Source of the DNA: Oehlia diaphana | Lineage: Eukaryota; Glomeromycota; Glomeromycetes; Glomerales; Glomeraceae | Length of the DNA: 64,000 bases | Assembly: GCA_003833135.1 (NCBI GenBank) | Contig: QZLH01000001.1 | Coordinates: forward strand, 345,002 to 409,001 | Direction of reading: 5' to 3' | Shown here: one piece after another, positions 29,445-56,363 of the stretch | How the letters are laid out: every line of letters begins with the position of its first letter | How positions within the stretch are numbered: the first letter of the stretch is position 1 | The notes under the pieces: model-generated | Databases searched by the model: none | The model's input: the letters and a program-made list of their open reading frames with translations, nothing else | Told to the model about the DNA's origin: nothing | Translations under genes and position numbers: made by a program

Positions 29445-30360
29445 CAGTCAACTCTCTATAAATGCACACCCTCTATAAATGCACCTTTTATCTAGTCCCA
29501 ACTTGGGCCTTAATGCTAAATGCACGGTTTTTATATATATATATTCTGTAAATGCACCCTTTATAAAAAAATTTTATATAGTTTACTTATAAAATNNNNN
29601 NNNNNNNNNNNNNNNNNNNNNNNNNNNNNNNNNNNNNNNNNNNNNNNNNNNNNNNNNNNNNNNNNNNNNNNNNNNNNNNNNNNNNNNNNNNNNNNNNNNN
29701 NNNNNNNNNNNNNNNNNNNNNNNNNNNNNNNNNNNNNNNNNNNNNNNNNNNNNNNNNNNNNNNNNNNNNNNNNNNNNNNNNNNNNNNNNNNNNNNNNNNN
29801 NNNNNNNNNNNNNNNNNNNNNNNNNNNNNNNNNNNNNNNNNNNNNNNNNNNNNNNNNNNNNNNNNNNNNNNNNNNNNNNNNNNNNNNNNNNNNNNNNNNN
29901 NNNNNNNNNNNNNNNNNNNNNNNNNNNNNNNNNNNNNNNNNNNNNNNNNNNNNNNNNNNNNNNNNNNNNNNNNNNNNNNNNNNNNNNNNNNNNNNNNNNN
30001 NNNNNNNNNNNNNNNNNNNNNNNNNNNNNNNNNNNNNNNNNNNNNNNNNNNNNNNNNNNNNNNNNNNNNNNNNNNNNNNNNNNNNNNNNNNNNNNNNNNN
30101 NNNNNNNNNNNNNNNNNNNNNNNNNNNNNNNNNNNNNNNNNNNNNNNNNNNNNNNNNNNNNNNNNNNNNNNNNNNNNNNNNNNNNNNNNNNNNNNNNNNN
30201 NNNNNNNNNNNNNNNNNNNNNNNNNNNNNNNNNNNNNNNNNNNNNNNNNTAATTTTAGATTAATATCATATAGATTTATATGTATTCTATAAATGCACAC
30301 CCTCTTTAAATGCACTCTTATACCTGGTCCCAAGGGGGTGCATTTATAGAGAGTTGACTG
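29445..30360. mobile_element. Short DNA transposon with TA target duplication (Tc1/mariner/pogo-like), interior unsequenced
   Basis: The ends are perfect 23-base inverted repeats starting CAGTCAACTCTCTATA, flanked by TA on both sides (29,443-29,444 and 30,361-30,362). Each end carries further AAATGCAC units in tandem and a subterminal GGTCCCAA or AGTCCCAA block. TA duplication with CAGT-type termini is typical of Tc1/mariner and especially pogo elements. Positions 29,596-30,249 are N, so whether a transposase remains cannot be told. If the gap size is right, the element (about 0.9 kb) is too short for a full transposase gene. Confidence 0.8.
29596..30249. other. Assembly gap, 654 Ns
   Basis: Run of undetermined bases inside the TA-flanked element. 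The gap probably reflects failure to assemble a dispersed repeat. The two open frames spanning it are artefacts of N translation. Confidence 0.98.
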
Positions 30361-30699: not shown

Positions 30700-33600
30700 T
30701 CATTCTTCTTTCTTTTCGCTATCACTATTAATCCAATTATTAATCCATTCTTTAGATTTTTCAATAATAATTTTTTCTTTTCCTTCATTTTCTACCATTT
30801 TCTTTAAAGCTTTTTCAGCTTTTTCATGACACATTTCACTTTCATCTTTAAAATTTTCAAACATAATAATTTCCAGATAAGCAATAGCAATACAAGTACT
30901 TAATATTTCCTCAATATCAGTCTTACCAATCTCTTTTTCAATTTCTTGTTTTAAATTGATGAAATCATTCAAATCATTTTTATAAAAAAATTCATAAAAT
31001 GATTTATTTGGCAAGAATTTACCATCAAAAGATTGTAATCCTAAAAATTCGAATAAATTTTCAATTTTTGGCTCTTTATGATTAACGTTAACTTTCTGTA
31101 GTGCTGCTGGCGTAACTTGCAATGGAGTACTATATTGAAAAAAAAAAATTTTTTATATCAATAACCCTTTCATATTAAAATAATATAATAAAACATGTAT
31201 ACCCACTCTTGCTGTAATCCTCCAACGACAACTAACAAATTATGTAAATATTCGATTCGATTAATCTTTTTTTTTTGTTTCAAAAATAGTTATTTAATAA
31301 ATTATAAAATAAAGTATACGTACATGATCTTTTCATTTTCCTCGCTTAATTAATATTATTAAAATTAATTAATGTTAAATTTTTTCCCTTTTTTTTTTAA
31401 AAAAAAAAAAAAAATTACAGAATACAATTTTTTTTACCTCTACCACTAATATACATACTTGAAGAAGATAAAAAAGAGCTAGCTCTTGCTGTAAAAAACT
31501 GGGGAACTTCCCTTTTCTGTGGAATTGTTCGTGCTTCAGATACAGTTTCATTGTTTCTTTCATCAATTGCAATAAAACTACAAATAAAAAAAAAAATATA
31601 AAAAATAAGTAAAAAATATAATTAAATTATAATAAATACTATTAATTTAATACAATTATACCTTGTATATTTTGAAGCTAAATTATAAGTTTTACCAAGT
31701 TTAACAATATGTTCTTTAACTAATGAATCTGGGATATGTGTATCAACATTTTTAGGATGTTTATGAATAAATGATTTTTCATAATTAAGATCTTGAATAA
31801 GTTTCCTTGCCGCTAATCTATGAATCTTTGAACCTTGTAAAGTAACTGGATCCAAAGGAACATCAAGTTTCATAGGGCCGTCTTGAGAAGTAGCTGTTAA
31901 AGTAATAATCTTACGTGGTTCAATATTTTTTTCCAAAATACAATAAACAATAAATCGAACACCAGGATAAATAGGTGGAATAATATATGGAGCTTGTTGA
32001 ACTTTAGTATCAATGAATATATCACTTTGTGATGGCGATTCTGTATTATCATTCGTAAAACTAGTAGCGGATTTATCCACTTCAGCTTGTAACTCTTTCT
32101 TTTCCTTTGATTCCGATAGATCAACATCAGTCCAAGTAATATTATAATCCTTAACTGGTGGTTTTAATGCATTTTTTAACATTCCAATGACTTTTTTATC
32201 CATTCTTTCATCATTTGTTACAAATTGAGCATATCCTTTACCAGCACGAGCAACAGATTCAACTAAATTATGAGAAACAGAATCGCCTATTCCTAATGAA
32301 AAAAGACGTAAATCATCTTTCTTTTTTTCTTCATTTTGACTTACAAGTCTTACAATTTGATCAACATTCCAAACTTCACCATCTGTAAGAAGGAATACAG
32401 AAGTTGGTACATCATCCCTTGAATTTTTAAATACCCATTCTAATGCACTATAAATTTCTGTTCCTCCATAGTTTGATTTCATTGTTTGAGCAAGATTAAG
32501 AGCTTCAGATAAAGATGTTTCAGAATAGGATTGACTTTTTGGAAAAAGAGAATCATAATGAGATCCGAAAGAAATTACATTAAAGTAACAATCTTCAGGA
32601 AGTGAGCGTAATAACAATTCAAGTGCTTGTGCGGCTTTTTTCATAGGTTCAACACTCATTGATCCCGATCTAATTAAAAAATTTTTTTTAATTTTTTTTT
32701 TATTAATTGAACAGAAAATTTCATTTGGTAATTAAATTATATCATACCTATCAACAACAAAAACTAGTTCAGATATGGTAGTATTTAATGATAGTTTTGG
32801 AACCAAAGTTAACATAACACAGTTAGTTTTTGTTTCAGGATTATACTCAACAAAAGCTCTGAAAGAAATATAAAGAATTTTTAATTATTTATATTAAAAT
32901 AAAAATCAAAAAAATAATTACGTAAAATATTTACCGAGGTTGATCAAGGTCTTTACTTTTAATTACAAGAATAAAATCTTTTTCTAAATAAGTAGTTTGT
33001 TGAGTTAAAGTAATTTTAGAAATTTTAGGATTTTCATCAATATTCATTTCAGTAGAAATTTTATGTGAAGGTGATTCAATATTTTGAATAGATGAAGTCA
33101 TTCTACAAGTAATAGCAAGATTTAAATAAAAATCTGCTTTATTAGAATAAGACACAACATCAGGATTAAGAATTTTTCCATCATTTGAAGATGATGAATA
33201 TTCTGAAGAACCATATCTTGGAGCGATATTAGTTGGTAAAACAAATCGAATATTCTCAGATTCAGAATCATGTTTAAGTTCGGTAACATATGTAATCTTC
33301 ATGACTACGGTTTGCCCTGACGTAATATTTCCAACAGAACATTGAAACACATCTTCGGATTCAGATTCTAACAAATAAGCACCATGTCCTTCCTAATCTT
33401 TCAAGAAAATGAAAATCAATTTAACTTAAATATACATAAACTTTGAAATTATTTAAATTTATCTGATATAACCTGAACTGCTTCAGTATATTCTTTAGCG
33501 GCCTCTTTTGATTCTTTTACGATACCCTTTACTTTTCTCTGTCCATCAATTTCTGCCTCAAAGCCGCAGACTGCTGCGGCTTCATAAATAGGAAATTTAT

Positions 33601-33909
33601 AGAGGGCTTCAATGGTATTTTTTTCAACATTTTTGTAAGTCTGGCTGATCGTAACTATAAAAATGAAAAAGATTAATATTATATAAACTATAATCCTAAT
33701 AGAATTTTTATTCGATAAATTTAACGAACCTTCAGCGATCATATCAACGACTAAAAAAAAAATTGCAATTTAGGGAATATCATTATAACGAAAATGAAAA
33801 AATAATTAAATAATTACAACAACTTACTAGTAGCTTCAACAGCAACATTTTGTAAAGGAATTGGTTTTAATTCTCGTTCAACAACAAAGCAGAGTCCGTA
33901 AATTTGCAT
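30700..33909 (-). CDS. VIT + VWA domain protein, tandem paralogue A
   Basis: Nine exons on minus: 33828-33909, 33730-33750, 33473-33654, 32935-33392, 32748-32858, 31662-32669, 31438-31577, 31207-31231, 30700-31129; 818 residues in continuous frame. The N-terminal VIT domain (about 10-150; FPIYEAAAVCGFEAEIDG, CSVGNITSGQ) is followed by a VWA domain with a complete MIDAS site (Asp284-x-Ser286-x-Ser288, Thr355, Asp381). Then come a beta-rich region and a C-terminal module starting ENLFEFLGLQSFDGKF. The order matches VWA5A/PARP4-type intracellular VIT-VWA proteins, which act as adhesion or scaffold proteins; no enzyme domain is present. No signal peptide is seen, so it should be cytosolic. The start is the only ATG in exon 1 and is shared by paralogues A-C. 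It has two microexons, of 21 and 25 nt. Biological role in fungi is unknown. Confidence 0.88.
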
Positions 33910-37511: not shown

Positions 37512-40500
37512 TCATAATATTTTTGATTGGCCAGATTGACCACATGATCGCGTCATCAAAATCACCCAATTTTTAATCCATTCTTCAGCTTTTTCAATAA
37601 TAATTTTTTCTTTTTCATTATTTCCAATCATTTTCTTAAAAACCTTTTCAGCTTTTTCATAACACATTTCACATTCATCTTTAAAATCATCAAACATAAC
37701 AATTTTCAAATAAGCAATAGCAATACAACTAGTTAATATTTCTTCAATTTCCTTTTCACTCAATTCACTTAATTCTTTTTCAATTTCTTGTTTAAAGTTA
37801 TTAAACCCATCTAAATAATTTTTATAAAAAAATTCATAAAATGTTTTATTGGGGAAGAATTTACCATCAAATGATTGTAACCCCAAAAATTCGAATAAAT
37901 TTTCAATGTTTGGTTCTATATGAAAAACATTAACTTCCTGTCGCGATGCTTGTGGACTTCTTGAAAAAAAATTTTTGAAAAAAAAAAATATTAATTAACA
38001 TCCTCATATTATAGAACATAAATGAATATGTATACTAACTCTTCAACTAGATTTTCTGAATTAGCCACTAATAAATCATATAAATAAATATTCGATTAAT
38101 TTAAGTGAGTGTCATTATTTAAATTCATTAAATAAATAAAATTATAAAACAAACATACAGAGACTTTTCACTTAGTGAATATTAATAATATTAAATTAAT
38201 GTTATTAAATGTTTTCTTTTTTTAAAAAAAAAAATAAATAAATAAATAAAAATATTCAAATAGTAATTTTTACCCATTACGGAACTCATGCTATATGAAC
38301 ACAAATCGTCCATATCTCTATACGATGCATACGATGCATACGATGCAATTAATTGAGGGACTTCTCTTTTCTGTGGAATTATTTGAGACTCGGATAAACT
38401 TTCATTATTTCGCTCATCAGTTGCAATGAAACTATAAAAAAATTATAATTAATAGGTAATATACAAAATAAATTAATCGCAAGTTAATTAAATGAATTTT
38501 ATACCTTGTATATTTCGATGCTAAATTATAGGTTTTGCCAAGTTTAATAATATGCCCTTTAACTAATGAATCTGAGATGTGTTTATTAGCATTTTTAGGA
38601 TGTTTATGAATAAATGATTTTTCATCATTAAGATCTTGAATCAGTTTCCTTGCCGCTAATCTATGAATCTTTGAACCTTGTAAAGTAACTGGATCTAAAG
38701 GAATATCAAGTTTCATAGGGCCATCTTGAGAAGTAGCTTTTAAAGTAATAACTTTACATGGTTCAATATTTTTTTCTAAAATACAATAGACAATAAATCG
38801 AACTCCAGAATAAATGGGTGGAATAATATATGGAGCTTGTTGAACTTTAATATCAGTGAATATATCACTTGGTGGTGGTGATAGCGGTTCCATATTGTCA
38901 TCACTCATAAAACTAATAGTAGGTTTATCCACTTCAATTGGAGTCATATCTAATTCTTTTTCATCCAATAAATTGACCTCAGTCCAAGTAATATTATAAT
39001 CCTTAATTGGTGGTTTTAAAGCATTTTTTAACATTCCAATGACTTTTTTATCCATTCTTTCATCATTTGTTACAAATTGAACATATCCTTTACCAGCACG
39101 AGCAACAGATTCAACTAAATTATGGGAAACAGAATCACCTATTCCTAATGAAAAAAGACGTAAATCATCGTTCTTTTCTTCTTCATGTTTACTTACAAGT
39201 TCTACAATTTGATCAACATTCCAAACTTCTCCATCTGTAATAAGAAATATAGAAGTTGGCATATCATCTCTTGAATTTTTAAATACCCATTCTAATACAT
39301 TATAAACTTCTGTTCCCCCATAATTTGATTTCATTGTTCGAGCAAGATTAAGAGCTTTAGATAAAGATGTTTCGGAGTAAAGTTCACTTTTTGGAAAAAG
39401 AGAATCATAATAAGATCCAAAAGATACTACATTAAAATAACAATCTTCAGGGAGGGAACGTAATAATAATTCAAGTGCTTGTGCGGCTTTCTTCATAGGT
39501 TCAACATTCATTGATCCCGATCTATTTAAAACATTTTTTTTATTAATTGAACAGAAAATTTCAATTTGTAGTTGAGTTATAACATACCTATCAACAACAA
39601 AAACTAATTCGGATATAGTAGTATTTAATGAAAATTTTGGAACCAAAGTTAGCATAATACAATTAGTTTGTATTTCAGGATTATACTCAACAAAAGCTCT
39701 GAAATAAATTTAAATAATTTTAATTATAGTATTAAACAAAAAATAATTACGTGAAATATTTACCGTGGTTGATCAAGGTCCTTACTCTTAACCACAAGAA
39801 TAAAATCTTTTTCTAAATAAGTAATTTGTTCGGTCAAAGTAATTTTAGAAATTTTAGGATTTCCGTCAATATTCATTTCAGTAGAAATTTTATGTGAAGG
39901 TGATTCAATATTTTGAATAGTTGAAGTCATTCTACAAGTAACAGCAAGTTCTAAATAAAAATCTGCTTTATTAGAATAAGATACAATATCAGGATTAAGA
40001 ATTTTTCCATCATTTGAAGATGACGAGTATTCTGAAGAACCATATCTTGGAGCGATATTAGTTGGTAGGACAAATCTAATTTTTTCTGATTCAGAATCAT
40101 GTTTAAGTTCGGTAACATATGTAATCTTAATGACTACAGTTTGTCCCGATATAATATTTCCAACAGAACATTGAAACACTTCTTCGGATTCAGATTCTAA
40201 CAAATAAGCACCATGTCCTTCCTAATCATTTAAGAAAATGAAAGTTAATTATATTAAATAATATTTTGAAATTATTTTAAATTATATTACCTGAATTGCT
40301 TCAGTATACTCTTTCGCAGCCTCTTTTGCTTCTTTTACGATGCCCTTTACTTTTCTTTGACCATCAATTTCTGCTTCAAACCCGCAGATTGCTGCGGCTT
40401 CATAGATAGGGAACTTATAGAGCGCTTCAATAGTGTCTTTTTCAATATTTTTATATGCCTGGATGATCGTAACTAATAAAAAAAGAAAAAATAAATAAAT

Positions 40501-40747
40501 AAAAACCACAATGAATAATCATAATATCGTTTATATAAATTTGACGTACCTTCAGCGATCATATCAACGACTTCAAAAAAAATTGGCAATTAATGGATTT
40601 AATCAATTTTGGGAACATCATTATAAAAAAAATTGAAAAATAAGTTATAATCAACATGAACTTACTATTAGCTTCAACAGCAACATTTTGTAAAGGAATC
40701 GGTTTTATTTCCTGTTCAACAATAAAACAAAGTCCGTAAATTTGCAT
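37512..40747 (-). CDS. VIT + VWA domain protein, tandem paralogue B
   Basis: Nine exons on minus, same plan as A: 40666-40747, 40550-40570, 40291-40472, 39764-40221, 39588-39698, 38505-39521, 38274-38431, 38040-38067, 37512-37959; 834 residues. VIT and VWA domains are complete, with the MIDAS DRSGS, YGGTE and TDGEV motifs. It is very like A across exons 1-6. Differences cluster in the linker: exon 6 has a longer acidic loop (PPPSDIF), and exon 7 holds a small Ala-Ser-Tyr triplet (ASYASYASY) from a 9-base tandem repeat. The C-terminus runs past the usual NW end into a new tail (ILMTRSCGQSGQSKIL), most likely from a lost stop codon. No break is seen, so it should be functional. Confidence 0.87.
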
Positions 40748-43473: not shown

Positions 43474-46400
43474 TTACTTTCTCCAATTTTTAATCCACTC
43501 TTCACCTCTTTCAATAATAATCCTTTCTTTCTCTATATTTCCAATCATTTTCTTTAAAACTTTTTCAACTTTTTCATAACACATTTCACATTCATCTTTA
43601 AAATTATCAAATATAATAATTTTTAAATAAGCAATAGCAATACAATTGCTTAATATTTCTTCAATTTCTTTTTCACTTAATTCATTTAATTCTTTTTCAA
43701 TTTCTTGTTTTAAATTATTAAAATCATTTAAATTATCTTTATAAAAAAATTCATAAAATGATCTATTTGGTAAAAATTTACCATTAAATGATTGTAATCT
43801 CAAAAATTCAAATAAATTTTCAATCTGTGATTCTTTATGATTAATATTGGAGTTGTTAATTGGTGATTGTGTAAATGAATCAAATGAAAATTGTCGATGA
43901 GTTGAATCAAATCCAAAACCAGCTTGAGAATTAGTAGATTGTCCAAATAAACTAGGTTGAGAATTAGTAGGTTGTTCAAATAAACTAGGTTGAGAATTAG
44001 TAGGTTGTCCAAATAAATTAGGTTGAGAATTAGTAGGTTGTCCAAATAAATTAGGTTGAGAATTAGTAGGTTGTCCAAATAAACTAGGTTGAGAATTAGT
44101 AGGTTGCCCAAATAAACTAGGTTGAGAATTAGTAGGTTGTCCAAATAAACTAGGTTGAGAATTAGTAGGTTGTCCAAATAAACTAGATTGAGAATTATTA
44201 GGTTGTTCAAATAAACTAGGTTGAGAATTAGTAGGTTGTCCAAATAAACTAGGTTGAGAATTAGTAGGTTGTCCAAATAAACTAGATTGAGAATTATTAG
44301 GTTGTTCAAATAAACTAGGTTGAGAATTAGTAGGTTGTCCAAATAAACTAGGTTGAGAATTAGTAGGTTGTCCAAATAAACTAGATTGAGAATTATTAGG
44401 TTGTTCAAATAAACTAGGTTGAGAATTAGTAGGTTGTCCAAATAAACTAGGTTGAGAATTAGTAGGTTGTCCAAATAAACTAGGTTGGCTATTTTGGGCA
44501 GCAGTTTGTCCAAATCCAAAACCAGTCGGTTGTCCTGATTGAGTTTGTCCAAATCCAAAACCAGTCGGTTGTCCTGATTGAGTTTGTCCAAATCCAAAAC
44601 CAGTCGGTTGTGTAGTTTGTCTTAATCTAAAACCAGTCGGTTGTGTAGTTTGTGCAGATCTAAAACCAGTAAATCCTGATCGAGTTTGTCCAAATCCAAA
44701 ACCAGTCAGTTGTGTAGTTTGTCTAAATAAAGTAGGTTGAATGATGGATTGGGCTTGAGCAGTCATTTGCTGTTGTTGAGATTGTTGTGCAGAACTACCG
44801 AATTGAGAAGAATTAGTACTTTTAAATATATATACAAAAAAAAGTTTATAATAATTTTTTTTTTGGACAAACGGGAATAACTTACGCAAATGTAGCTATA
44901 ATATAGAAATAATTAATTAATAACATATACTAACATATACATAAATAAATAAAAAAATTTTTTTTTTACATACGTCTAAATCCAAAAAAATTAGCATGTT
45001 GGGGAACGATTCTTTTCTGTGGAATTGTTTGAGATTCAGATACAACTGTTTCAATATTTTTTTCATCGATTGCAATAAAACTAATAAAAAATATATGAAA
45101 GTATAATATTATTATTAAGAAATAAATGTAATTAAGTTATAAAAGTAAATTTACACTACCTTGTATATTTCGAAGCTAAATTATATGTTTTACCAAGCTT
45201 AACAATTTGTTCTTTAACAAATGAAGCTGGAATATGTTTATTAGCATTTTTAGGATGTTTATGAAAAAATGATTTTTTATCATTAAGGTCTTGAATAAGT
45301 TTTCTTGCCGCTAATCTATGAATTTTTGAACCTTGTAGAGTAACTGGATCTAAAGGAATATCAAGTTTCATAGGACCATCTTGTGAAGTAGCTTTCAAAC
45401 TAATGACTTTACATGGTTCAATGTTTTTTTCCAAAATACAATAGACTATAAAACGAATACCAGAATAAATTGGTGGAATAAAATATGGAGCTTGTTGAAC
45501 TTTAATATCAGTAAATATATTTATGGTTGGTGGTGGTGGTTCCGTATTATCATCACTCATAAAACTAATAGTAGGTTTATCAACTTCCATTGGAGTTATG
45601 TCTAATTCCTTCTCTTCGAATGGTTCGACATTGGCCCAGGTAACATTATAATCCTTAATTGGTGGTTTTAAAGCATTTTTTAACATTCCAATGACTTTTT
45701 TATCTATTCTTTCATCATTTGTTACAAATTGAGAATATCCTTTACCGGCACGAGCAATAGATTCAACTAAATTATGAGAAACAGAATCACCTATTCCTAA
45801 TGAAAAAAGTCGTAAATCATCTTTCTTTTTTTCTTCATTTTCACGTACGAGTTCTACAATTTGATCAACATTCCAAACTCCGCCATCCGTAAGAAAAAAT
45901 ACGGAAGTCGGCATATCATCCCTTGAATTTTCAAATGTCCATTTTAATGCACTAAAAACTTCGGTCCCGCCATAATTTGCAGTCATTGTTTGAGCAAGAT
46001 TAAGAGCTTTAGATAAAGATGTTTCAGAATAAAGTTGACTCTTTGGAAAAAGAGGATCATAATGAGATCCAAAAGATACTACATTAAAGTAACAATCTTC
46101 GGAAAGTGAGTGCAATAATAATTCAAGCGCCTGTGCAGCTTTTTTCATAGGCTCAATTCCCATTGATCCAGATCTATTTCATATTCAAAAAAATAAATAA
46201 ATAAATAAAAAAAAGATGAAATGAATTTAATAATACACTTATAATTGAATTACATCATACCTATCAACGACAAAAATTAGTTCAGACATAGTTGCATTTA
46301 ACGCAAATGTTGGAACCAAAGTCAACATAACACAATTAGTTTGCGTTTCAGGATTGTACTCAACAAAAGCTCTAAAAGAGATTATATCAAAAAGATTAAC

Positions 46401-47451
46401 GATTAAAATAAGAAAGAAAGTAAATGCAAAATTATTAATTAAAATGTTTACCGTGGTTGATTAAGGTCTTTACTTTTAACCACAAGAATAAAATCTTTTT
46501 CTAAATAAGTAATTTGTTCGGATAAAGTAACTTTGGAAATTTTAGGATTTTCATCAATATTCAATTCAGTAGAAATTTTATGTGAAGGTGATTCAATATT
46601 TTGAATGGTTGAAGTCATTCTACAAGTAATAGCAAGATCTAAATAAAAATCTGCCTTATTAGAATAAGATACGACATCAGGATTAAGAATTTTTCCATCA
46701 TTTGAGGATGATGAATATTCTGAAGAACCATATCTTGGGGCGATGTTGGTTGGTAGAACAAACCGAATTTTCTCCGTTTCAGAGTCATGTTTAAGTTCAG
46801 TAACATATGTTATCTTTATGATTACAGTTTGTCCTGATGTAATATTTCCAACAGAACATTGAAACACATCTTCGGATTCAGATTCTAACAAATAAGCACC
46901 ATATCCCTTCTGATTAATTAAAAAAAAAGAGAATTAATTCATTTACATACAGAAAAAATAACATTGAAAATTATTAAAATATTTTCACCTGAACTGCTTC
47001 AGTATATTCTTTAGCGGCCTCTTTTGATTCTTTTACGATACCCTTTATTTTTCGTCCATCGATTTCTGCTTCAAATCCGCAGATTGCTGCGGCCTCATAA
47101 ATAGGAAACTTATAGAATGCTTCGATAGTATCTTTTTCAACGTTTTTATAAGTTTGGCTAATCGTAACTATTATAAAAAAAAAATAAGTAAATAAAAAAA
47201 ATAAATAAATAAATAAAATAAAATAAATAAAATATAAAGAATTATGGACAATAGTATCTTATAATTGATCAACACGAACCTTCAGCGATCATATCAACGA
47301 CTGAAAAATAATTTAAATATATGATTAAATTAATTGGAATAGCAATTTAAAATATAGAATCAAGATATTTACCATTAGCTTCTACGACAACATTTTGTAA
47401 AGGAATCGGAGTTACTCTCCACCCAATAAAACAAAGACCGTAAATTTGCAT
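43474..47451 (-). CDS. VIT + VWA protein with nucleoporin-like FG repeats, tandem paralogue C
   Basis: Nine exons on minus: 47373-47451, 47280-47300, 46989-47167, 46452-46909, 46261-46371, 45160-46173, 44974-45080, 44886-44895, 43474-44818; 1,107 residues. VIT and VWA are as in A (MIDAS intact). The last exon, before the shared C-terminal module, has an insertion of about 325 residues absent from A, B and D. It has a Q-rich start (QQSQQQQ), several TGFGFGQ repeats, then 17 copies of an 11-residue SQPSLFGQPTN unit with a higher-order period of three (33 residues). FG/LFG repeats separated by polar N/Q/S/T spacers are the hallmark of nuclear-pore FG domains. Exon 8 is only 10 nt long (PTFA junction), needed to keep frame. 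Calling the tract a phase-separating or pore-targeting domain is inference. Confidence 0.85.
43925..44490. repeat. 33-bp minisatellite with 99-bp higher-order period (encodes FG repeats)
   Basis: On plus the unit reads AAATAAACTAGGTTGAGAAT followed by TAGTAGGTTGTCC. About 17 copies occur. Every third unit in the middle carries the same variants (LFE and PNN instead of LFG and PTN), giving three nearly identical 99-base blocks. This points to recent unequal exchange or slippage. The open frame in another reading frame across it is a by-product of the periodicity. Confidence 0.9.
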
Positions 47452-49357: not shown

Positions 49358-52300
49358 TTACTTATTCATAACCCAATTTTTAATCCATTCTTTAGCTTTT
49401 TCCCCAATAATTTTTTCTTTTTCTTCATCTTCAACCATTTTCTTTAAAGCTTTAACAGCTTTTTCATAACACAACTCACTTTCATCTTTAAATTTTTTAA
49501 ACATAATTATTTCCAGATAAGCCAATGCAATACTAGTGGTTAATATTTCCTCAATTTCTTTAATACCAATATTACCCATTTCTTTTATAATTTCTTGTTT
49601 TAAATTGATGAAATCATTTAAATCATTCTTATAAAAAAATTTATAAAACGATTCCTTTGATGAGAATTTACCATCAAATGATTGTAATTCTAAAAATTCA
49701 AATAAATTTCCAATTTGTGATTCCTTATGATTGACTTTAGATTTACTATCATCAAATACACTTCCAATTTGTAATTCTTTATGATTAAATTCAGATCCAA
49801 TGTATAGTCCTGTTATTGTAGGTTGTCCTGTTTCTTTTGGTTCGGATTTTGCTGGTATAAGAGATCGAATTCTATTGAAAATAATTTCTTATTTCATATT
49901 TACAGCGTAATCAAAAAAAAAAACTTAAATTAAACTACTGACCCCAATCTTACTAAATCCATTATATTAAACCCGCCGCCACGAACGTTTAAACTTGCAT
50001 CCTAATATTTAAGTCGATTAAAGATCATTTAATAAAAATCACTCTTATACATTAAACCAATATTACTGTTAATAAGTGTGTTTCATTACTTTAAATATAC
50101 AAAATATTAACATTTCTTCTTACCATTACTGGATGTGATATCCCACTGTATGTACTGAATTGAGAAACTAATTGAGGAACATTCCTTTTTTGTGGAATTG
50201 TTCGAGATTTAATTAGAACTTCACTAATTTCATTATTTCTTTCATCGATTGCAATAAAACTAATAATAAAAAGAGATAATCATGATTATTATTCAAAACT
50301 TTTATATAATATAATCAAAAAGAAAATAAATAAACAAAATTATACCTTGTAAATTTTGAAGCTAAATTATAAGTTTTGCCAAGTTTAACAATATGTTCTT
50401 TAACGAATGAAGCTGGAATAAATTTACCAACATTTTTAGGAAGTTTATGAATAAATGATTTTTTATCATCAAGATCTTGAATAAGTTTTCTTGCCGCTAA
50501 TCTATGAATTTTTGAACCTTGTAAGGTAACAGGATCCAAAGGAATATCAAGTTCCATAGGATGACCATCATGAGAAGTAGCTTTTAATTTAATAGTTTTA
50601 CATGGCTCAATATTTTTTTCCAAAATACAATAGGCCATAAAACGAATACCAGTATAAATTGGTGGAATAATATATGGAGCTTGTTGAATCTTAATAGATG
50701 GTAAAGATTCTGTCTCATCACTCATAAAGCTAATAGCCGATTTATCATCTTCTTTTGATTCCAAAAGATCTAGACTAGTCCAAGTAATTTTATAATCCTT
50801 AATTGGTGGTTTTAATGCACTTTTCAGCATTTCAATAACTTTTCTATCCATTCTTTCATCATTTGTTACAAATTGAGCATATCCTCTACCAGCACGGGCA
50901 ACAGATTCAACTAAATTATGAGAAACAGAATCACCAATTCCTAATGAAAAAAGCCGTAAATCATTCGTTTTTTCTTCATTTTTACGTACAAGTTCTACAA
51001 TCTCATCAACATCCCAAACTTTGCCATCTGTAATAAGAAATACAGAAATTGGCATATCATCCCTTGAATTTTCAAATGCCCATTCTAATGCACTATAAAT
51101 TTCTGTTCCCCCATAATTTGACTTCATTGTTTGAGCAAGATTAAGAGCTTTAGATAAAGACGTTTCAGAATAAAGTTGACTTTCTGGAAATAAAGAATCA
51201 TGATAAGATCCAAATGATATTACATTAAAGTAGCAATTTTCAGGAAGTGAATGCAATAACAATTCAAGTGCTTGTGCGGCTTTCTTCATAGGTTCAATAC
51301 CCATTGATCCTGATCTATTTCATATTCAAAAAAATAAAAATTCATTGTAAATTAAATGGAAATTTCACTTCAAAAATTATTTACATAGGTGACATACCTA
51401 TCTACAATGAAAACTAACTCAGACATGATTACATTTAACGAGAATTTTGGAACCAAAGTCAACATAATACATTTAGTTTGTGTTTCAGGATTGTACTCAA
51501 CAAAAGCTCTAAAAAAAATATATAATTATATTAAAAATGAAAAATAAAAAAAAAAATTATGTATATATAAATACAAAATTATTAATTAAAATATTTACCG
51601 TGGTTGATCAATCTCTTTACTTTTAATCATGAGAATAAAATCTTTTTCTAAATAAGTAATTTGTTCGGATAAAGTAATTTTAGAAATTTTGGGATTCTCA
51701 TCAATATTCATTTCAGTAGAAATTTTATGTGAAGGTGATTCAATATTTTGAATAGTTGAAGTCATTCTACAAGTAACAGTAAGATCTAAATAAAAGTCTG
51801 CTTTATTAGAATAAGATACAACATCAGGTTTAAGAATTTTTCCATCATTTGAAGATGACGAATATACTGAAGAACCATATCTTGGAGCGATATTAGTTGG
51901 TAGAATAAATCAAATTTTCTCTGATTCAGAATCATGTTTAAGCTCGGTAACATATGTAATTTTAATAACCACGGTTTGTCCTGATGTGATATTTCCAACA
52001 GAACATTGAAAAACATCTTCGGATTCAGATTCTAACAAATAAGCACCATGTCCTTTCTATTCAATTCAAGAACAATTAAACTTATATATAAAAATAATGC
52101 ATTAAATCATTTTTAAATTTTATCAGATATTACCTGAACTTCTTCAGTATATTCTTTAGCGGCCTCTTTTGATTCTTTTACGATGCCCTTTATCTTTCTT
52201 CCATCAATTTCTACCTCAAATTCGCAGATTGCTGCGGCTTCATAAATAGGAAATTTATAGAATGCTTCGATGGTATCTCTTTCAACATTTTTATAAGTCT

Positions 52301-52567
52301 GTCTGATAGTAACTATTAAAGATGAATTATAGTATATTTATAAGGTTTAAAAAAAAATCATATCATATAATTTGACCAAACTACGAACCTTCAGCGATCA
52401 TATCAACGACTAATATTTAAAGAGAATTAAATGAAATATCATTTTCATATCATGTATAAAAAAATTGTCAAGTAAACCGGCTTACTTTTAGCTCCGATAA
52501 TAACATTTCGTAAAGGAATAGGATTTATTCCTATTTCAGTTGAAAAACAAAGACCGTAAGTTGACAT
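49358..52567 (-). pseudogene. VIT + VWA protein, tandem paralogue D, interrupted by an in-frame TGA
   Basis: Nine exons on minus: 52486-52567, 52389-52409, 52134-52312, 51599-52056, 51398-51508, 50346-51314, 50124-50259, 49943-50001, 49358-49871. Splice sites and frame are all preserved, giving 843 codons including the stop. However, codon 143 in exon 4 (51,910-51,912) is TGA where A, B and C have CGA (the KIRFVLPT segment; NIRFVLPT in A), a single C-to-T transition. Downstream VWA motifs (DRSGS, YGGTE, TDGKV) are intact, and the C-terminal module is present with a duplicated HKE.QIG segment. With only one lesion it could be a very young pseudogene, an allele, a sequencing error or a readthrough site. 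As written it would make a truncated VIT fragment. Confidence 0.75.
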
Positions 52568-53257: not shown

Positions 53258-56200
53258 TCATCTATTTCTTTTCTGTCCAAAAACTGATTTGTATAGCATG
53301 GAAATTATTCCAAGAGTAAACGTCGTAGCTACCGTAGTTACTAAATAAACTATATTAAAATCTAATTTATTCAAGTCGTCATGTTGTTGGACAGATTTTA
53401 GATCTTTTTGTAAAACTTCTCGGGATGTTATCTCTATAGGAGGCTTCTTCTTGCTTTTAGATTTTATGCTTAATGATTCTTTAGTTGGAGAAACAATTTC
53501 TCGTGACGCATTGGTAGCTACAGTTATATTATGAGTAGTATACATATCAGCATTTCGCGTTGATTCACCAGGTGATGACGCATTTGGTGATATTGGAGAT
53601 ATCTTACGTTGACTTATCTTGCCAGCTGAAATATTTACTCCTGTTAAGGATTCTTCGGAATTTTCTTGTTTTTCGATCAATTTTAGTTTTTCGATCGCTT
53701 TTAATACATCCGCATTAATCATATCTTGATCATTTGCAGGTGCTATTACAGTTGTGGGCATTGAAGATACCTTCTCATCAGCTGTGGCACTACTTTCTGG
53801 TTTTTCATATTGAACAGATGAAGGCTCAGCTATTACTTTGACTTCTGTTGTTGAATTAATATTTTCTTTGATAACGAGTTTTTCTCCACTCATGATATCG
53901 TATTCTTTTGCCTTTTCTTCAACGATAATCTCTCGAGTTTTATCTTCCATGTGTGATTCATTATTAAAAATGGTCGATTGCGCAGGCATCTCTCTTACGA
54001 GAGTGCTTTCGAGATTTTCATTTACATTTGTAGAAGACGGGATTCCTTCTTGTTTTGTGACTGTCTCCTCAACAAGGGACGTTGAAAGGATTTCATGCGA
54101 TTCGGTTACTTCATTATTTGAATTAATTTTTTCAATTACGTGATCAGACTTGGGAGTACCAGTATTTTCTTCAATTAATGCCCAAGTGTCCTTATTCGAC
54201 CATTCAACTTGAGTATTCTCGGACCATACATAGGCCGTTGACTCGTACGATTCTAGCCATGTACTAGGAATAGTTTCATCCATCGATTCATCCTTAGCCC
54301 AAGTATGATTTAATATAACCTCCTTAATAGACTCTGGAGATACTCCTTCAGGATATGTCTCTCCATTGAAGTGATTGAACATATCATCATAGGTCGAATA
54401 TTCATTATCATCATCCTTATTATAATCATCCTCCTCATAATCATCATCCTCATCATCATCATCATCATCATTTTCATTTATTGGGTCAAGTTCAGGTTCA
54501 TAAGTTTCTTCATAATCCACATCTGTAGAGGGCATTATTGTTTCTGTAGCATTAGTTGTTGAATCGGGTATTTTAACGCTTGAAGGTGAAACATTCTGTT
54601 CGTGTTTTTCATCGATTGAAGGAGGTTTATCCTCGATAAATTCTGTAACTTTAGATTCATTGATGGATTCATCTTTAATAATAGATTGTTCAGTAAATTC
54701 ATTGATGGATTCATCTTTTATAATAGATTGTTCAGTAAATTCATTGATGGATTCATCTTTTATAATAGATTGTTCAGTAAATTCATTGATGGATTCATCT
54801 TTAACGACAGATTGTACAATAATAACTTCGTTACTCAATTTACTTAATCCCTCAATTCCAGAGTTGGGTGTCTCTTGGGTAATTGTTGTTATCGAAGAAA
54901 TTCCTTCATCTTGATTATTGGATACCATTACTTCCTTTGTTTTTTCAGAAGTTACTTCACCGGAAATATTAATTTCTTTTTCAATAAATGTAACAGGATT
55001 CGTTGAATCATCATGTGAAGTGGATGAAGTATATTGAGACTCTTTTAGAGTTTCCTCATCAATAACGATATCAGGAGTCTTTTCAATGGATTCATTATTT
55101 GCGACGTGCTCTGCGGATAACTTTTCGTTATCAGATTCAATAATTGTTTCTTTCATAATTGAGGTGGTTTCAATCTCTAGTGCCTCTGATACGGAATTGT
55201 CACGTGATTGGTCAATTTGAACTGCTTCGGAAGATTCAGTAGAAGATTCTGTGATCTTTTCTGTAACATCTGATTCAACGTGAACTTCATCAACAAACTG
55301 TTCAGTTTTTTTAGAAACCTCCTCGTGCTGATGCACGATCTGATCATCATCATGCGGGTGCTGTTCTTTCTGATCATCAGTTGTTGCTGTGACCTGATCA
55401 TCAAAATGCTGGTAATGTTCTTTTTGATCATTATTAATACTGACCTGACTTTCCTCATGCTGATTTTGCTCAATTTGGACTTCAGATAAGATCTGTTTCT
55501 CCCCTTGTTGAAGCTGAATTTGATTTTCCTCGAGTTGAAGTTGATCTTTTTGGATATCAACTTCGTCCACATTTTGATTTAGTTCTTGGTCCTCGTTTAC
55601 AAGTTGATTTTCATTAAAATGTTCTTTGTGATGGATTTCAGATTCAAGATTTTCAACTTTCTGCTCTTCATCATCTTTTTGATCGTCAGTCATTTTTTCT
55701 TCTTCAGATGGAAGAGGAGGTGGTAATGGAACTTCATCTTTTTGATCCTCAGTCATTTTTTCTTCTTCAGATGGAATATGAGGTGGTAATGGAATGTCAT
55801 CTTTTTGATCCTCAGTAATTTTTTCTTCTTCGGATGGAATAGGAGGTGGTAATGGAACGTCATCTTTTTGATCCTCAGTCATTTTTTCTTCTTCAGATGG
55901 AATAGGAGGTGGTAATGGAACCTCCTTTTGATCCTCAGTCATTTTTTCTTCTTCAGATGGAAGAGGAGATGGTAATGGAACCTCATCTTTTTGATCCTCA
56001 ATCATTTTTTCTTCTTCAGATGGAAGAGGAGGTGGTAATGGAGGTTTCACCTCAATTACATGATTATAATTCCCACTTTCATCAGGATAAGAAGGTGTAG
56101 TAGGATCCAATACCCAATTACCGTCAATAACAAATTTATAAAAATATTTTTTATCTGGTACTAAACTTAAAGTAACTTCGCTAACATTATCAGCATTTTT

Positions 56201-56326
56201 ATTCATATCTATTGGAGTCCATAGTGGATTTGGAGGATCAAATGAACCAGCAATACAAATATGATTACCCCATTGTGACCAAGTAAATGTGATTGGTACA
56301 TGTTGTGAATTGTCTACGCTCGACAT
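53258..56326 (-). CDS. CBM48 (AMPK-type glycogen-binding) protein with acidic repeats and C-terminal tail anchor
   Basis: Single exon, 1,022 residues. The N-terminal CBM48 (about 10-92) has the WSQWGNHICIAGSFDPPNPL start, KKYFYKFVIDGNWVLDP and a YNHVIEV end, with the tryptophans expected to bind glucan. Six proline-acidic repeats of 20-21 residues (PPPLPSEEEKMTEDQK type, about 94-225) follow. Next is a long disordered acidic region with a 14-residue repeat (IIKDESINEFTEQS, three to four copies) and a DDDDDEDDDYEEDD run. The last 35 residues hold a hydrophobic segment (VTTVATTFTLGIISMLYKSV) and a basic GQKRNR end, a typical tail anchor. Yeast Crp1/Mdg1 share the CBM. Animal STBD1 pairs a glycogen-binding domain with a membrane anchor and tethers glycogen for glycophagy. 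A glycogen-to-membrane tether is my inference. A single long exon is unusual beside its intron-rich neighbours. Confidence 0.85.
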   Translation of the reverse strand: MSSVDNSQHVPITFTWSQWGNHICIAGSFDPPNPLWTPIDMNKNADNVSEVTLSLVPDKKYFYKFVIDGNWVLDPTTPSYPDESGNYNHVIEVKPPLPPPLPSEEEKMIEDQKDEVPLPSPLPSEEEKMTEDQKEVPLPPPIPSEEEKMTEDQKDDVPLPPPIPSEEEKITEDQKDDIPLPPHIPSEEEKMTEDQKDEVPLPPPLPSEEEKMTDDQKDDEEQKVENLESEIHHKEHFNENQLVNEDQELNQNVDEVDIQKDQLQLEENQIQLQQGEKQILSEVQIEQNQHEESQVSINNDQKEHYQHFDDQVTATTDDQKEQHPHDDDQIVHQHEEVSKKTEQFVDEVHVESDVTEKITESSTESSEAVQIDQSRDNSVSEALEIETTSIMKETIIESDNEKLSAEHVANNESIEKTPDIVIDEETLKESQYTSSTSHDDSTNPVTFIEKEINISGEVTSEKTKEVMVSNNQDEGISSITTITQETPNSGIEGLSKLSNEVIIVQSVVKDESINEFTEQSIIKDESINEFTEQSIIKDESINEFTEQSIIKDESINESKVTEFIEDKPPSIDEKHEQNVSPSSVKIPDSTTNATETIMPSTDVDYEETYEPELDPINENDDDDDDEDDDYEEDDYNKDDDNEYSTYDDMFNHFNGETYPEGVSPESIKEVILNHTWAKDESMDETIPSTWLESYESTAYVWSENTQVEWSNKDTWALIEENTGTPKSDHVIEKINSNNEVTESHEILSTSLVEETVTKQEGIPSSTNVNENLESTLVREMPAQSTIFNNESHMEDKTREIIVEEKAKEYDIMSGEKLVIKENINSTTEVKVIAEPSSVQYEKPESSATADEKVSSMPTTVIAPANDQDMINADVLKAIEKLKLIEKQENSEESLTGVNISAGKISQRKISPISPNASSPGESTRNADMYTTHNITVATNASREIVSPTKESLSIKSKSKKKPPIEITSREVLQKDLKSVQQHDDLNKLDFNIVYLVTTVATTFTLGIISMLYKSVFGQKRNR
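55680..56045. repeat. 60-66-bp coding minisatellite in the CBM48 gene
   Basis: Six head-to-tail copies of a unit containing CAGTCATTTTTTCTTCTTCA (plus strand) encode the proline-acidic repeats. A second coding repeat of 42 bases lies at about 54,655-54,800. Confidence 0.85.
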
Positions 56327-56363
56327 TCTTTTTTTAAAAGTATTCTATAAAAGTCTATTTTTG

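What the first reader, a model, noticed from the sequence alone, without database searches (positions are those of the whole stretch)
43474..47451. A VIT/VWA protein has gained a nuclear-pore-like FG repeat domain
Copy C of a four-gene tandem array has about 325 extra residues of GFGFGQ and SLFGQ repeats with N/Q/S/T spacers, placed between VWA and the conserved C-terminal module; A, B and D lack them. The nesting of 33-base units into 99-base blocks shows recent growth. FG tracts drive phase separation or entry into the nuclear-pore permeability barrier, so one paralogue may have a new location or assembly state. The repeat and its absence elsewhere are seen; the function is inferred.
Basis: partly seen in the sequence, partly recalled or inferred. 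Interest (0 to 1): 0.85.

Follow-up and report, generated by a model that had tools for sequence, protein, structure and literature searches.

The report
Fungal protein with nuclear-pore-like tether
In arbuscular mycorrhizal fungi a family of intracellular VIT/VWA proteins has, at least twice, turned the floppy link before its C-terminal domain into an FG-repeat stretch of the kind that lines nuclear pores; copy C in this window is one case, with a very young repeat array, and what the stretch does is untested.

Summary
Confirmed: copy C (43474-47451, minus strand, 1107 aa) carries a 331-residue FG tract (23 FG, 4.8% charged residues) between its VIT-VWA core and a conserved helical C-terminal module; A, B and D lack it. 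It holds 17 near-identical 33-bp units, including three identical 99-bp blocks. A published R. diaphanus protein differs from copy C only by lacking two of these blocks.

R. irregularis and R. clarus orthologues also carry the tract. So do an unlinked paralogue (contig C256) and its relatives in other genera. On a tree of 124 VIT-VWA cores the FG state changes twice, and one FG clade is rejected (p-AU 7.9e-7, 59 rows). By position, length and helical fold the C-terminal module corresponds to the CTD published for Vwa1/VWA5A, and the tract is its disordered tether.

Best reading: the tether became a charge-depleted FG domain, compositionally like this genome's own Nup58 FG region. Published per-repeat energies predict, for 23 repeats, roughly tenfold enrichment in an FG phase but little self-condensation. 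Nuclear-pore entry is inferred. Neutral repeat growth remains a strong rival: the units are young, four have lost the G, and the tract evolves faster than the core.

The parts
43474..47451 (-). Copy C: VIT-VWA-[FG tether]-CTD gene, 9 exons: 47451-47373, 47300-47280, 47167-46989, 46909-46452, 46371-46261, 46173-45160, 45080-44974, 44895-44886, 44818-43474; 1107 aa
   Evidence: Spliced model with GT-AG introns; published R. diaphanus protein P0001 identical apart from a 66-aa deletion
43825..44817 (-). FG tract, residues 661-991 of copy C (331 aa, 23 FG, 4.8% charged)
   Evidence: Pfam PF13634 51.5 bits
43916..44487 (-). Array of 33-bp units encoding PSLFGQPTNSQ (17 units); includes three copies of a 99-bp block
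   Evidence: published allele lacks two 99-bp blocks
44503..44713 (-). 39-bp array encoding the GFGFGQT..QPT repeats
43474..43824 (-). CTD: helical C-terminal module, residues 992-1107
   Evidence: Shared with A, B, D and found in 112 of 126 sequences examined; AlphaFold2 model pLDDT 93.2, all helical
46989..47451 (-). Exons 1-3, first part of the VIT domain (VIT = residues 18-128)
   Evidence: Pfam VIT 6.5e-35
45160..46909 (-). Exons 4-6: end of VIT, VWA (residues 276-432, MIDAS DRSGS / YGGTE / TDGGV) and post-VWA core
   Evidence: Pfam VWA_3 6.4e-26; MIDAS pieces; core residues 16-467 match human PARP4 621-1063 at 2.6e-50
30700..33909 (-). Copy A: VIT-VWA-CTD, 825 aa, 85-aa charged linker, no FG
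37512..40747 (-). Copy B: VIT-VWA-CTD, 838 aa, 85-aa charged linker, no FG
49358..52567 (-). Copy D: VIT-VWA-CTD, 842 codons with an in-frame TGA at codon 143 (51910-51912); no FG

Best explanation
Copy C is an intracellular VIT-VWA-CTD protein (the Vwa1/VWA5A kind, not a nucleoporin) in which the disordered tether between the ITIH-like core and the helical CTD has turned into an FG domain. The FG tether is under loose selection for composition rather than sequence: few charges, N/Q/S/T/P spacers, one FG about every 11 residues. It most likely makes the protein FG-philic. It can bind nuclear transport receptors and partition into an existing FG phase, foremost the nuclear pore barrier, while the VWA/MIDAS face and the CTD bind partners; the long tether should also loosen any docking of the CTD on the VWA domain. 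Shown: the anatomy, the charge-depleted FG composition, at least two state changes to an FG tether at the same place, retention in orthologues. Inferred: intracellular location (from the published family), FG-phase partitioning, receptor binding, pore or nuclear-envelope location, effect on CTD docking.
For: Anatomy and placement; disordered loop between core and CTD is published for Vwa1/VWA5A (PMC10539598). FG enrichment beyond composition in 14 of 14 FG linkers (0 of 2000 shuffles each), FG the most enriched dipeptide in 12 of 14; charge 4-18% in them against 11-37% in the 53 other linkers. The trait recurs: 18 of 113 scored cores, 2 changes on the tree; one FG clade rejected, p-AU 7.9e-7, 59 rows. 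Retention: all six copy C clade rows (three species) and all eight rows of the C256-type clade have it. In the C256 type, 21 of 28 FG phenylalanines align with F between R. irregularis and Funneliformis geosporum, against a mean of 15.4 and maximum of 20 in 60 dipeptide-shuffled controls. Copy C tract resembles the FG part of this genome's own Nup58 in composition. Published energy of 255 J/mol per GLFG repeat (PMC9579204 section 6) gives about 11-fold partitioning for 23 repeats.
Against: No localisation, binding or expression data. Units are young and four of 17 carry G to E, which breaks the FG. The tract is 66.6% identical to R. irregularis P0002 where the core is 98.4%, as expected if only loosely constrained. 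Of 7 FG relatives scanned, only 1 passes the Pfam nucleoporin cut-off, 1 matches below it and 5 do not match; the C256 last exon does not match either. The energy figure is for GLFG 12-mers, not SLFGQ, and the folded core would oppose partitioning. No NPC-anchoring domain found. The conservation of FG phenylalanines is only modestly above the shuffled control.
Confidence: 0.42

Rival explanations
1. Neutral repeat growth. A short N/Q/S/F/G-containing stretch in a tolerant disordered loop expanded by slippage or unequal exchange; the FG character is a by-product of which unit happened to be amplified, and the protein works as its sisters do.
For: 17 units show only six kinds of codon change from consensus (5 amino-acid changing, 1 silent; random changes would be 22% silent), four units have lost the G of FG; two R. 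diaphanus sequences differ by exactly two 99-bp blocks; tract 66.6% against core 98.4% identity to R. irregularis P0002; different unit order in each species.
Against: Neutral growth does not predict that strongly FG-rich linkers arise twice in one family while 95 of 113 scored members have fewer than 5 FG, that FG is the top enriched dipeptide in 12 of 14, or that the C256-type linkers keep FG across genera.
Confidence: 0.3
2. Tether-length switch without FG function. The lengthened uncharged tether lowers the effective concentration of the CTD at the VWA domain and so relieves the autoinhibition proposed for Vwa1; the residues matter only as flexible spacer, or as a Q/N-rich self-associating region.
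For: [quoted passage not shown] copy C tether is about 371 aa against 84-119 aa in A, B, D.
Against: Does not explain the specific FG enrichment or the loss of charge. CTD docking was not tested here and is only a prediction in print.
Confidence: 0.2
3. Chimera or assembly artefact: the tract comes from a nucleoporin gene joined by mis-assembly, or was recently captured from one.
For: Tract resembles FG parts of two other genes in this genome, 62-68% identity at the protein level; local alignment beats 60 of 60 dipeptide shuffles for both.
Against: Same tract, same place in the published R. diaphanus protein and in R. irregularis and R. clarus orthologues; codon identity at shared words is 0.62 and 0.66 against 0.51 and 0.58 expected from codon usage alone, far from a copied stretch; frame open, flanks match sister copies.
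Confidence: 0.03

Closest known systems
Vwa1 (Dictyostelium) / VWA5A (BCSC-1) intracellular VIT-vWFA proteins (PMC10539598)
   Same: VIT, then VWA, then core remainder, disordered loop, about 100-residue helical CTD
   Different: The passages read describe no FG domain in that loop; copy C has 23 FG and about 5% charge there. Vwa1/VWA5A letters were not aligned here.
PARP4 / vPARP
   Same: Best solved relative of the core (PARP4 621-1063, E 2.6e-50); linker, then a C-terminal helical domain (MVPID/INT) that gives a profile match to the fungal CTD
   Different: No BRCT or PARP domain in copy C; FG counts in 8 mammalian PARP4 linkers examined were 0-5, clearly beyond shuffles in 2, borderline in 1, not in 5; vaults are reported missing from fungi (PMC2964712, PMC7916137)
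FG nucleoporins, e.g. this genome's Nup58/p45 (contig C728) and Nup98
   Same: Median FG spacing 9 (Nup58) and 11 (copy C), N/Q/S/T-rich spacers, charge-depleted, Pfam PF13634
   Different: No nucleoporin anchor; lower FG density than Nup58 here (6.9 against 10.9 per 100 aa); FG part lies between folded domains
Engineered perfectly repeated GLFG domain prf.GLFG (PMC9579204)
   Same: Near-perfect short FG repeat (12-mer GGLFGGNTQPAT there; natural 11-mer PSLFGQPTNSQ here)
   Different: 52 repeats there; 17 SLFGQ-type units plus GFGFGQ-type repeats here
Non-nucleoporin FG-repeat proteins such as C. elegans GLH-1 (PMC8311347)
   Same: FG domain on an unrelated folded protein; meets that review's rule of 5 or more FG in 200 aa (18 in copy C)
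   Different: The words VWA and von Willebrand do not occur in that review's main text

Membership tests
VIT-VWA-CTD (Vwa1/VWA5A type) | VIT domain followed by VWA domain | tested here: met
   Pfam VIT 6.5e-35, VWA_3 6.4e-26
VIT-VWA-CTD (Vwa1/VWA5A type) | MIDAS residues DxSxS, T, D in VWA | tested here: met
   DRSGS, YGGTE, TDGGV in copy C; which residues define MIDAS is recalled
VIT-VWA-CTD (Vwa1/VWA5A type) | C-terminal helical CTD of about 100 residues after a disordered loop | tested here: inconclusive
   Module found in 112 of 126 sequences including chytrids and a moss, all-helical model pLDDT 93.2, weak match to the C-terminus of a solved VWFA protein 9e5c_4s, E 0.091; Vwa1 and VWA5A sequences themselves not compared
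FG nucleoporin | FG-repeat region scoring over the Pfam cut-off | tested here: met
   PF13634 51.5 bits, cut-off 32.2
FG nucleoporin | Nucleoporin anchoring or scaffold domain | tested here: not met
   No nucleoporin family besides PF13634 in the Pfam scan to E 1
FG nucleoporin | Location at the nuclear pore | not testable with these tools
   needs tagged protein
PARP4 / vPARP | ITIH-like VIT-VWA core | tested here: met
   phmmer to human PARP4, 174.8 bits
PARP4 / vPARP | BRCT and PARP catalytic domains | tested here: not met
   absent from copy C Pfam scan, present in P0121
PARP4 / vPARP | C-terminal MVP-interacting domain | tested here: inconclusive
   hhalign P 1.8e-4, probability 49%, best of 27 PARP4 windows, P 7e-4, probability 26%, with 12 sequences; similar helix order; but the fold lists for the CTD model show no PARP4 row while the PARP4 model finds 9bw6_B
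Vault component | Major vault protein in the same genome | tested here: inconclusive
   PF01505, PF11978, PF17796 gave 0 matches, but no positive control rang

The most novel reading that the evidence does not exclude
Glomeromycotina, which appear to lack vaults, have twice fitted a nuclear-pore-type FG domain into the tether of a vault-protein-like VIT-VWA-CTD scaffold. This makes a family of soluble, non-nucleoporin FG proteins that ride in the pore's FG phase and bring partners held by the VWA face and CTD to the nuclear envelope, paralleling the reported docking of vaults at pores in animals.
Probability: 0.15. Interest if true: 0.78.

Novelty: new variant of a known kind. Interest (0 to 1): 0.5.

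Why it matters
FG domains are mostly studied in nucleoporins. A family where a folded core and C-terminal module are shared while the FG tether is present or absent among sisters, and has arisen more than once, is a ready natural experiment: sister copies in one array (A and B, and D if it is alive, against C) are matched controls for what an FG domain does to a soluble protein. The copy C array is also a natural near-perfect FG repeat with a known length difference of two 99-bp steps, close in design to the engineered GLFG repeats used to measure pore physics, so predictions such as 'each repeat adds a fixed partition energy' become testable with natural sequences. The possible kinship of the CTD and the PARP4 vault-binding domain would give that domain relatives, which a 2023 annotation did not find among characterised domains of other human proteins.

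Tried and rejected

Recent capture from a nucleoporin gene: codon identity only slightly above codon-usage expectation. Conversion from the C256 paralogue: the R. clarus copy C linker shows no likeness to the two Rhizophagus C256-type linkers tested beyond dipeptide shuffles (z 0.1 and 0.9). Against that, the same R. clarus linker gives z 3.3, 1.7 and 4.4 with Gigaspora, Cetraspora and Funneliformis linkers, copy C itself z 2.3 to 4.0, R. irregularis copy C z 2.9 to 8.7, and one R. irregularis linker z 11.0 with the C71 FG gene: periodic FG arrays align with each other, so this test cannot exclude an old exchange.

PARP4 as a third FG case: of 8 linkers tested, FG was clearly beyond shuffles in 2 (7 and 13 of 2000 reach it), borderline in 1 (97 of 2000) and not in 5, so not adopted. 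phmmer of the tract against PDB: none. A search with the C-module of the C256-type protein P0083 reached only itself and R. irregularis proteins of the same type. C71 as a nucleoporin: a 42-residue neighbour frame found nothing useful, so left unnamed. One of 7 rows (C50, 15% identity) is an unrelated repeat and was set aside.

Paper searches for an FG-bearing VIT-VWA protein: searches found 0 papers; some searches found 1, 13 and 262, of which 1, 8 and 12 were listed, and none of the titles or abstract starts shown names one. Searches were on vaults. Only CC-licensed PMC papers are held, so this is no proof of absence from print.
Full report
What is there. The window is from a 108.8-Mb fungal assembly in 1672 contigs; the protein encoded by copy C matches a published Rhizophagus diaphanus protein at 100% over the compared core. 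Four tandem minus-strand genes (A 30700-33909, B 37512-40747, C 43474-47451, D 49358-52567) encode VIT-VWA proteins. Copy C splices from nine exons into 1107 residues: VIT 18-128, VWA 276-432, core remainder to about 621, a linker of about 371 residues, and a C-terminal module 992-1107. Residues 661-991 are the FG tract: 331 aa, 23 FG, Q 63, S 53, P 36, T 35, F 35, G 33, N 28.

Is it more than chance. In the copy C linker FG occurs 24 times against 3.7 expected from the same residues shuffled; none of 2000 shuffles reaches it. Pfam Nucleoporin_FG gives 51.5 bits against a cut-off of 32.2. In the search of the own genome with that family only copy C was listed over the cut-off (by exon, a lower bound).

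How young is the array. The 17 units of 33 bp show six kinds of codon change from their consensus, five amino-acid changing and one silent, where random point changes would be 22% silent. Four units have G to E, which removes the FG. Units 2-4, 5-7 and 8-10 are identical 99-bp blocks; the published R. diaphanus protein P0001 lacks 66 residues, i.e. two such blocks, and is otherwise identical. Whether this is an allele or an assembly collapse cannot be told here. Against R. irregularis P0002 the core is 98.4%, the CTD 95.7% and the tract 66.6% identical.

It is not a private gain. A search with copy C residues 250-660 found 365 relatives, of which the best 120 are listed and were used; the other 245 were not seen. 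R. irregularis (P0002, P0003, P0005) and R. clarus (P0004) orthologues carry FG tracts with other unit orders. The own genome has two more members with the C-terminal module: one on C256, whose 582-aa last exon is FG-rich, and one on C41 without FG. Relatives of the C256 type with FG come from R. irregularis, R. clarus, Funneliformis geosporum, Glomus cerebriforme, Gigaspora, Cetraspora and Racocetra; that these span more than one order of Glomeromycotina is recalled.

Tree. VIT-VWA cores only, linker and CTD left out. With 67 chosen rows (of 124 usable) 14 were FG (5 or more FG in the linker, a threshold set before the tree) and 53 not: 2 changes. With all 124 rows, 18 FG, 95 not and 11 unscored because the CTD is missing: 2 changes, and starred branches force 2. 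Without 8 long-branch rows, an AU test rejects all FG rows as one clade (p 7.9e-7, 59 rows); the copy C clade has support 99.6, the C256-type clade only 62.7, so three origins are possible. Counts of changes do not tell gain from loss; an FG ancestor would need several losses.

Two kinds of linker. All 14 FG linkers exceed 2000 of 2000 shuffles, are 4.1-18.0% charged and have FG as most enriched dipeptide in 12 of 14; the other 53 are 11.1-36.5% charged. A few of these 53 also have more FG than expected: P0094 and P0100 four each (0 of 500 shuffles reach it), P0119 four (1 of 500), P0109 three (3 of 500), P0017 and P0044 two each (7 of 500), so the loop may be prone to FG. By a published rule (5 FG in 200 aa; PMC8311347, passages read) 19 of 126 sequences are FG-repeat proteins.

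Is FG kept by selection. Between R. irregularis and F. geosporum 21 of 28 FG phenylalanines align with F in the C256-type linker; aligning to 60 dipeptide-shuffled linkers gives a mean of 15.4 and a maximum of 20. Much of the raw excess seen is therefore alignment bias and the rest is modest. In copy C itself selection on single units looks weak.

Comparison with real nucleoporins here. The gene on C728 is Nup58/p45: its coiled-coil part hits solved Nup58 chains (2osz_A, E 1.6e-10) and Pfam PF15967. Its FG part has 10.9 FG per 100 aa, median spacing 9 and 1.6% charge; copy C 6.9, 11 and 4.8%; C256 6.8, 10 and 3.0%. A second FG gene on C71 (14.5 per 100) was not identified. Codons at shared five-residue words agree 0.62 and 0.66 against 0.51 and 0.58 expected, so copy C was not lately copied from either.

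The C-terminal module. An iterated profile from six own-genome seeds finds it in 112 of 126 sequences, chytrids and a moss included. AlphaFold2 gives an all-helical fold, pLDDT 93.2; no solved fold matches convincingly. Boland et al. 2023 (PMC10539598; passages, outline with abstract and the first of two parts of the Discussion read) describe intracellular VIT-vWFA proteins Vwa1 and VWA5A with a CTD of about 100 residues after a long disordered loop, predicted to dock on VWA. By position, length and fold the module is that CTD and the FG tract lies in that loop; their letters were not compared here.

PARP4. The core's best solved relative is human PARP4. The A1 profile of 29 CTDs from fungi, a moss and one unnamed protein matches PARP4 1571-1681 with P 1.8e-4 (probability 49%, score 27.9), while 25 other windows that do not overlap it score at most 13.7 and one overlapping window 24.7. 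With 12 non-human sequences P is 7e-4, probability 26%. Models show a like order of helices: fungal 4-11, 24-29, 35-48, 54-97, 100-118; PARP4 2-7, 19-25, 29-38, 41-71, 84-90 and 92-109, with three short ones after. Against it: Foldseek finds the solved PARP4 domain 9bw6_B for the PARP4 model (E 6.8e-10) but no PARP4 row is among the 50 of 168 shown for the fungal model. PMC10450202 (passages read) says this PARP4 domain bears no homology to previously characterised domains of other human proteins, so the link, if true, would be new.

How it may work. In PMC9579204 (passages, and sections 6 and 9 read) each GLFG 12-mer adds 255 J/mol to partitioning at 21 degrees and 150 mM salt, and at 27 degrees 26 repeats did not separate until 300 uM. 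For 23 repeats this predicts about 11-fold partitioning and little self-condensation. This is a transfer from another motif and ignores the folded core. PMC7916137 and PMC2964712 (passages read) report that vaults are missing from fungi and that vaults associate with nuclear pores in animals; PMC12547018 and PMC7618893 were read in passages and change nothing here.

Verdict. The event is older and recurrent, not a single new gain; only the 33/99-bp array is young. Function is open between FG-phase partitioning (0.42), neutral growth (0.30) and a tether switch (0.20).

Noticed in passing
51910-51912: Copy D has an in-frame TGA at codon 143 in the VIT region; the published R. diaphanus protein for this gene (P0030) starts downstream of it, so the stop may be real and D a pseudogene or an N-truncated form.
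   Followed up: partly
43474-43824 and PARP4 1571-1681: Possible kinship of the fungal CTD with the PARP4 vault-binding domain (hhalign P 1.8e-4; similar helix order; not shown by Foldseek).
   Followed up: partly
53258-56344: Minus-strand 1028-aa open frame with an N-terminal AMPK1_CBM glycogen-binding domain (E 2e-15; only the first 241 residues from the ATG were scanned), in-frame 63-bp and 42-bp repeat arrays and, by eye, a C-terminal membrane anchor: another protein grown by in-frame repeats.
   Followed up: partly
G000:C256:55608-59329 (L006, L012): Unlinked paralogue with a tract of about 400 residues and 27 FG; two of its orthologues (P0079, P0083) have K instead of T in the YGG(T/K)E part of the VWA metal site.
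   Followed up: yes
G000:C41:110536-113755 (L007, L013): Sixth VIT-VWA-CTD member, without an FG linker.
   Followed up: partly
G000:C728:18512-19267 (L018): Nup58/p45 nucleoporin gene with an SQPSLFGQ-type FG tail much like copy C's array.
   Followed up: yes
G000:C71:12046-12744 (L020): FG-rich gene with 75 FG in 517 aa (GGFGFGQTTQPAA repeats), probably a nucleoporin but not identified.
   Followed up: partly
29596-30249: Stretch of N (654 bases) beside the array, a gap or withheld sequence.
   Followed up: no
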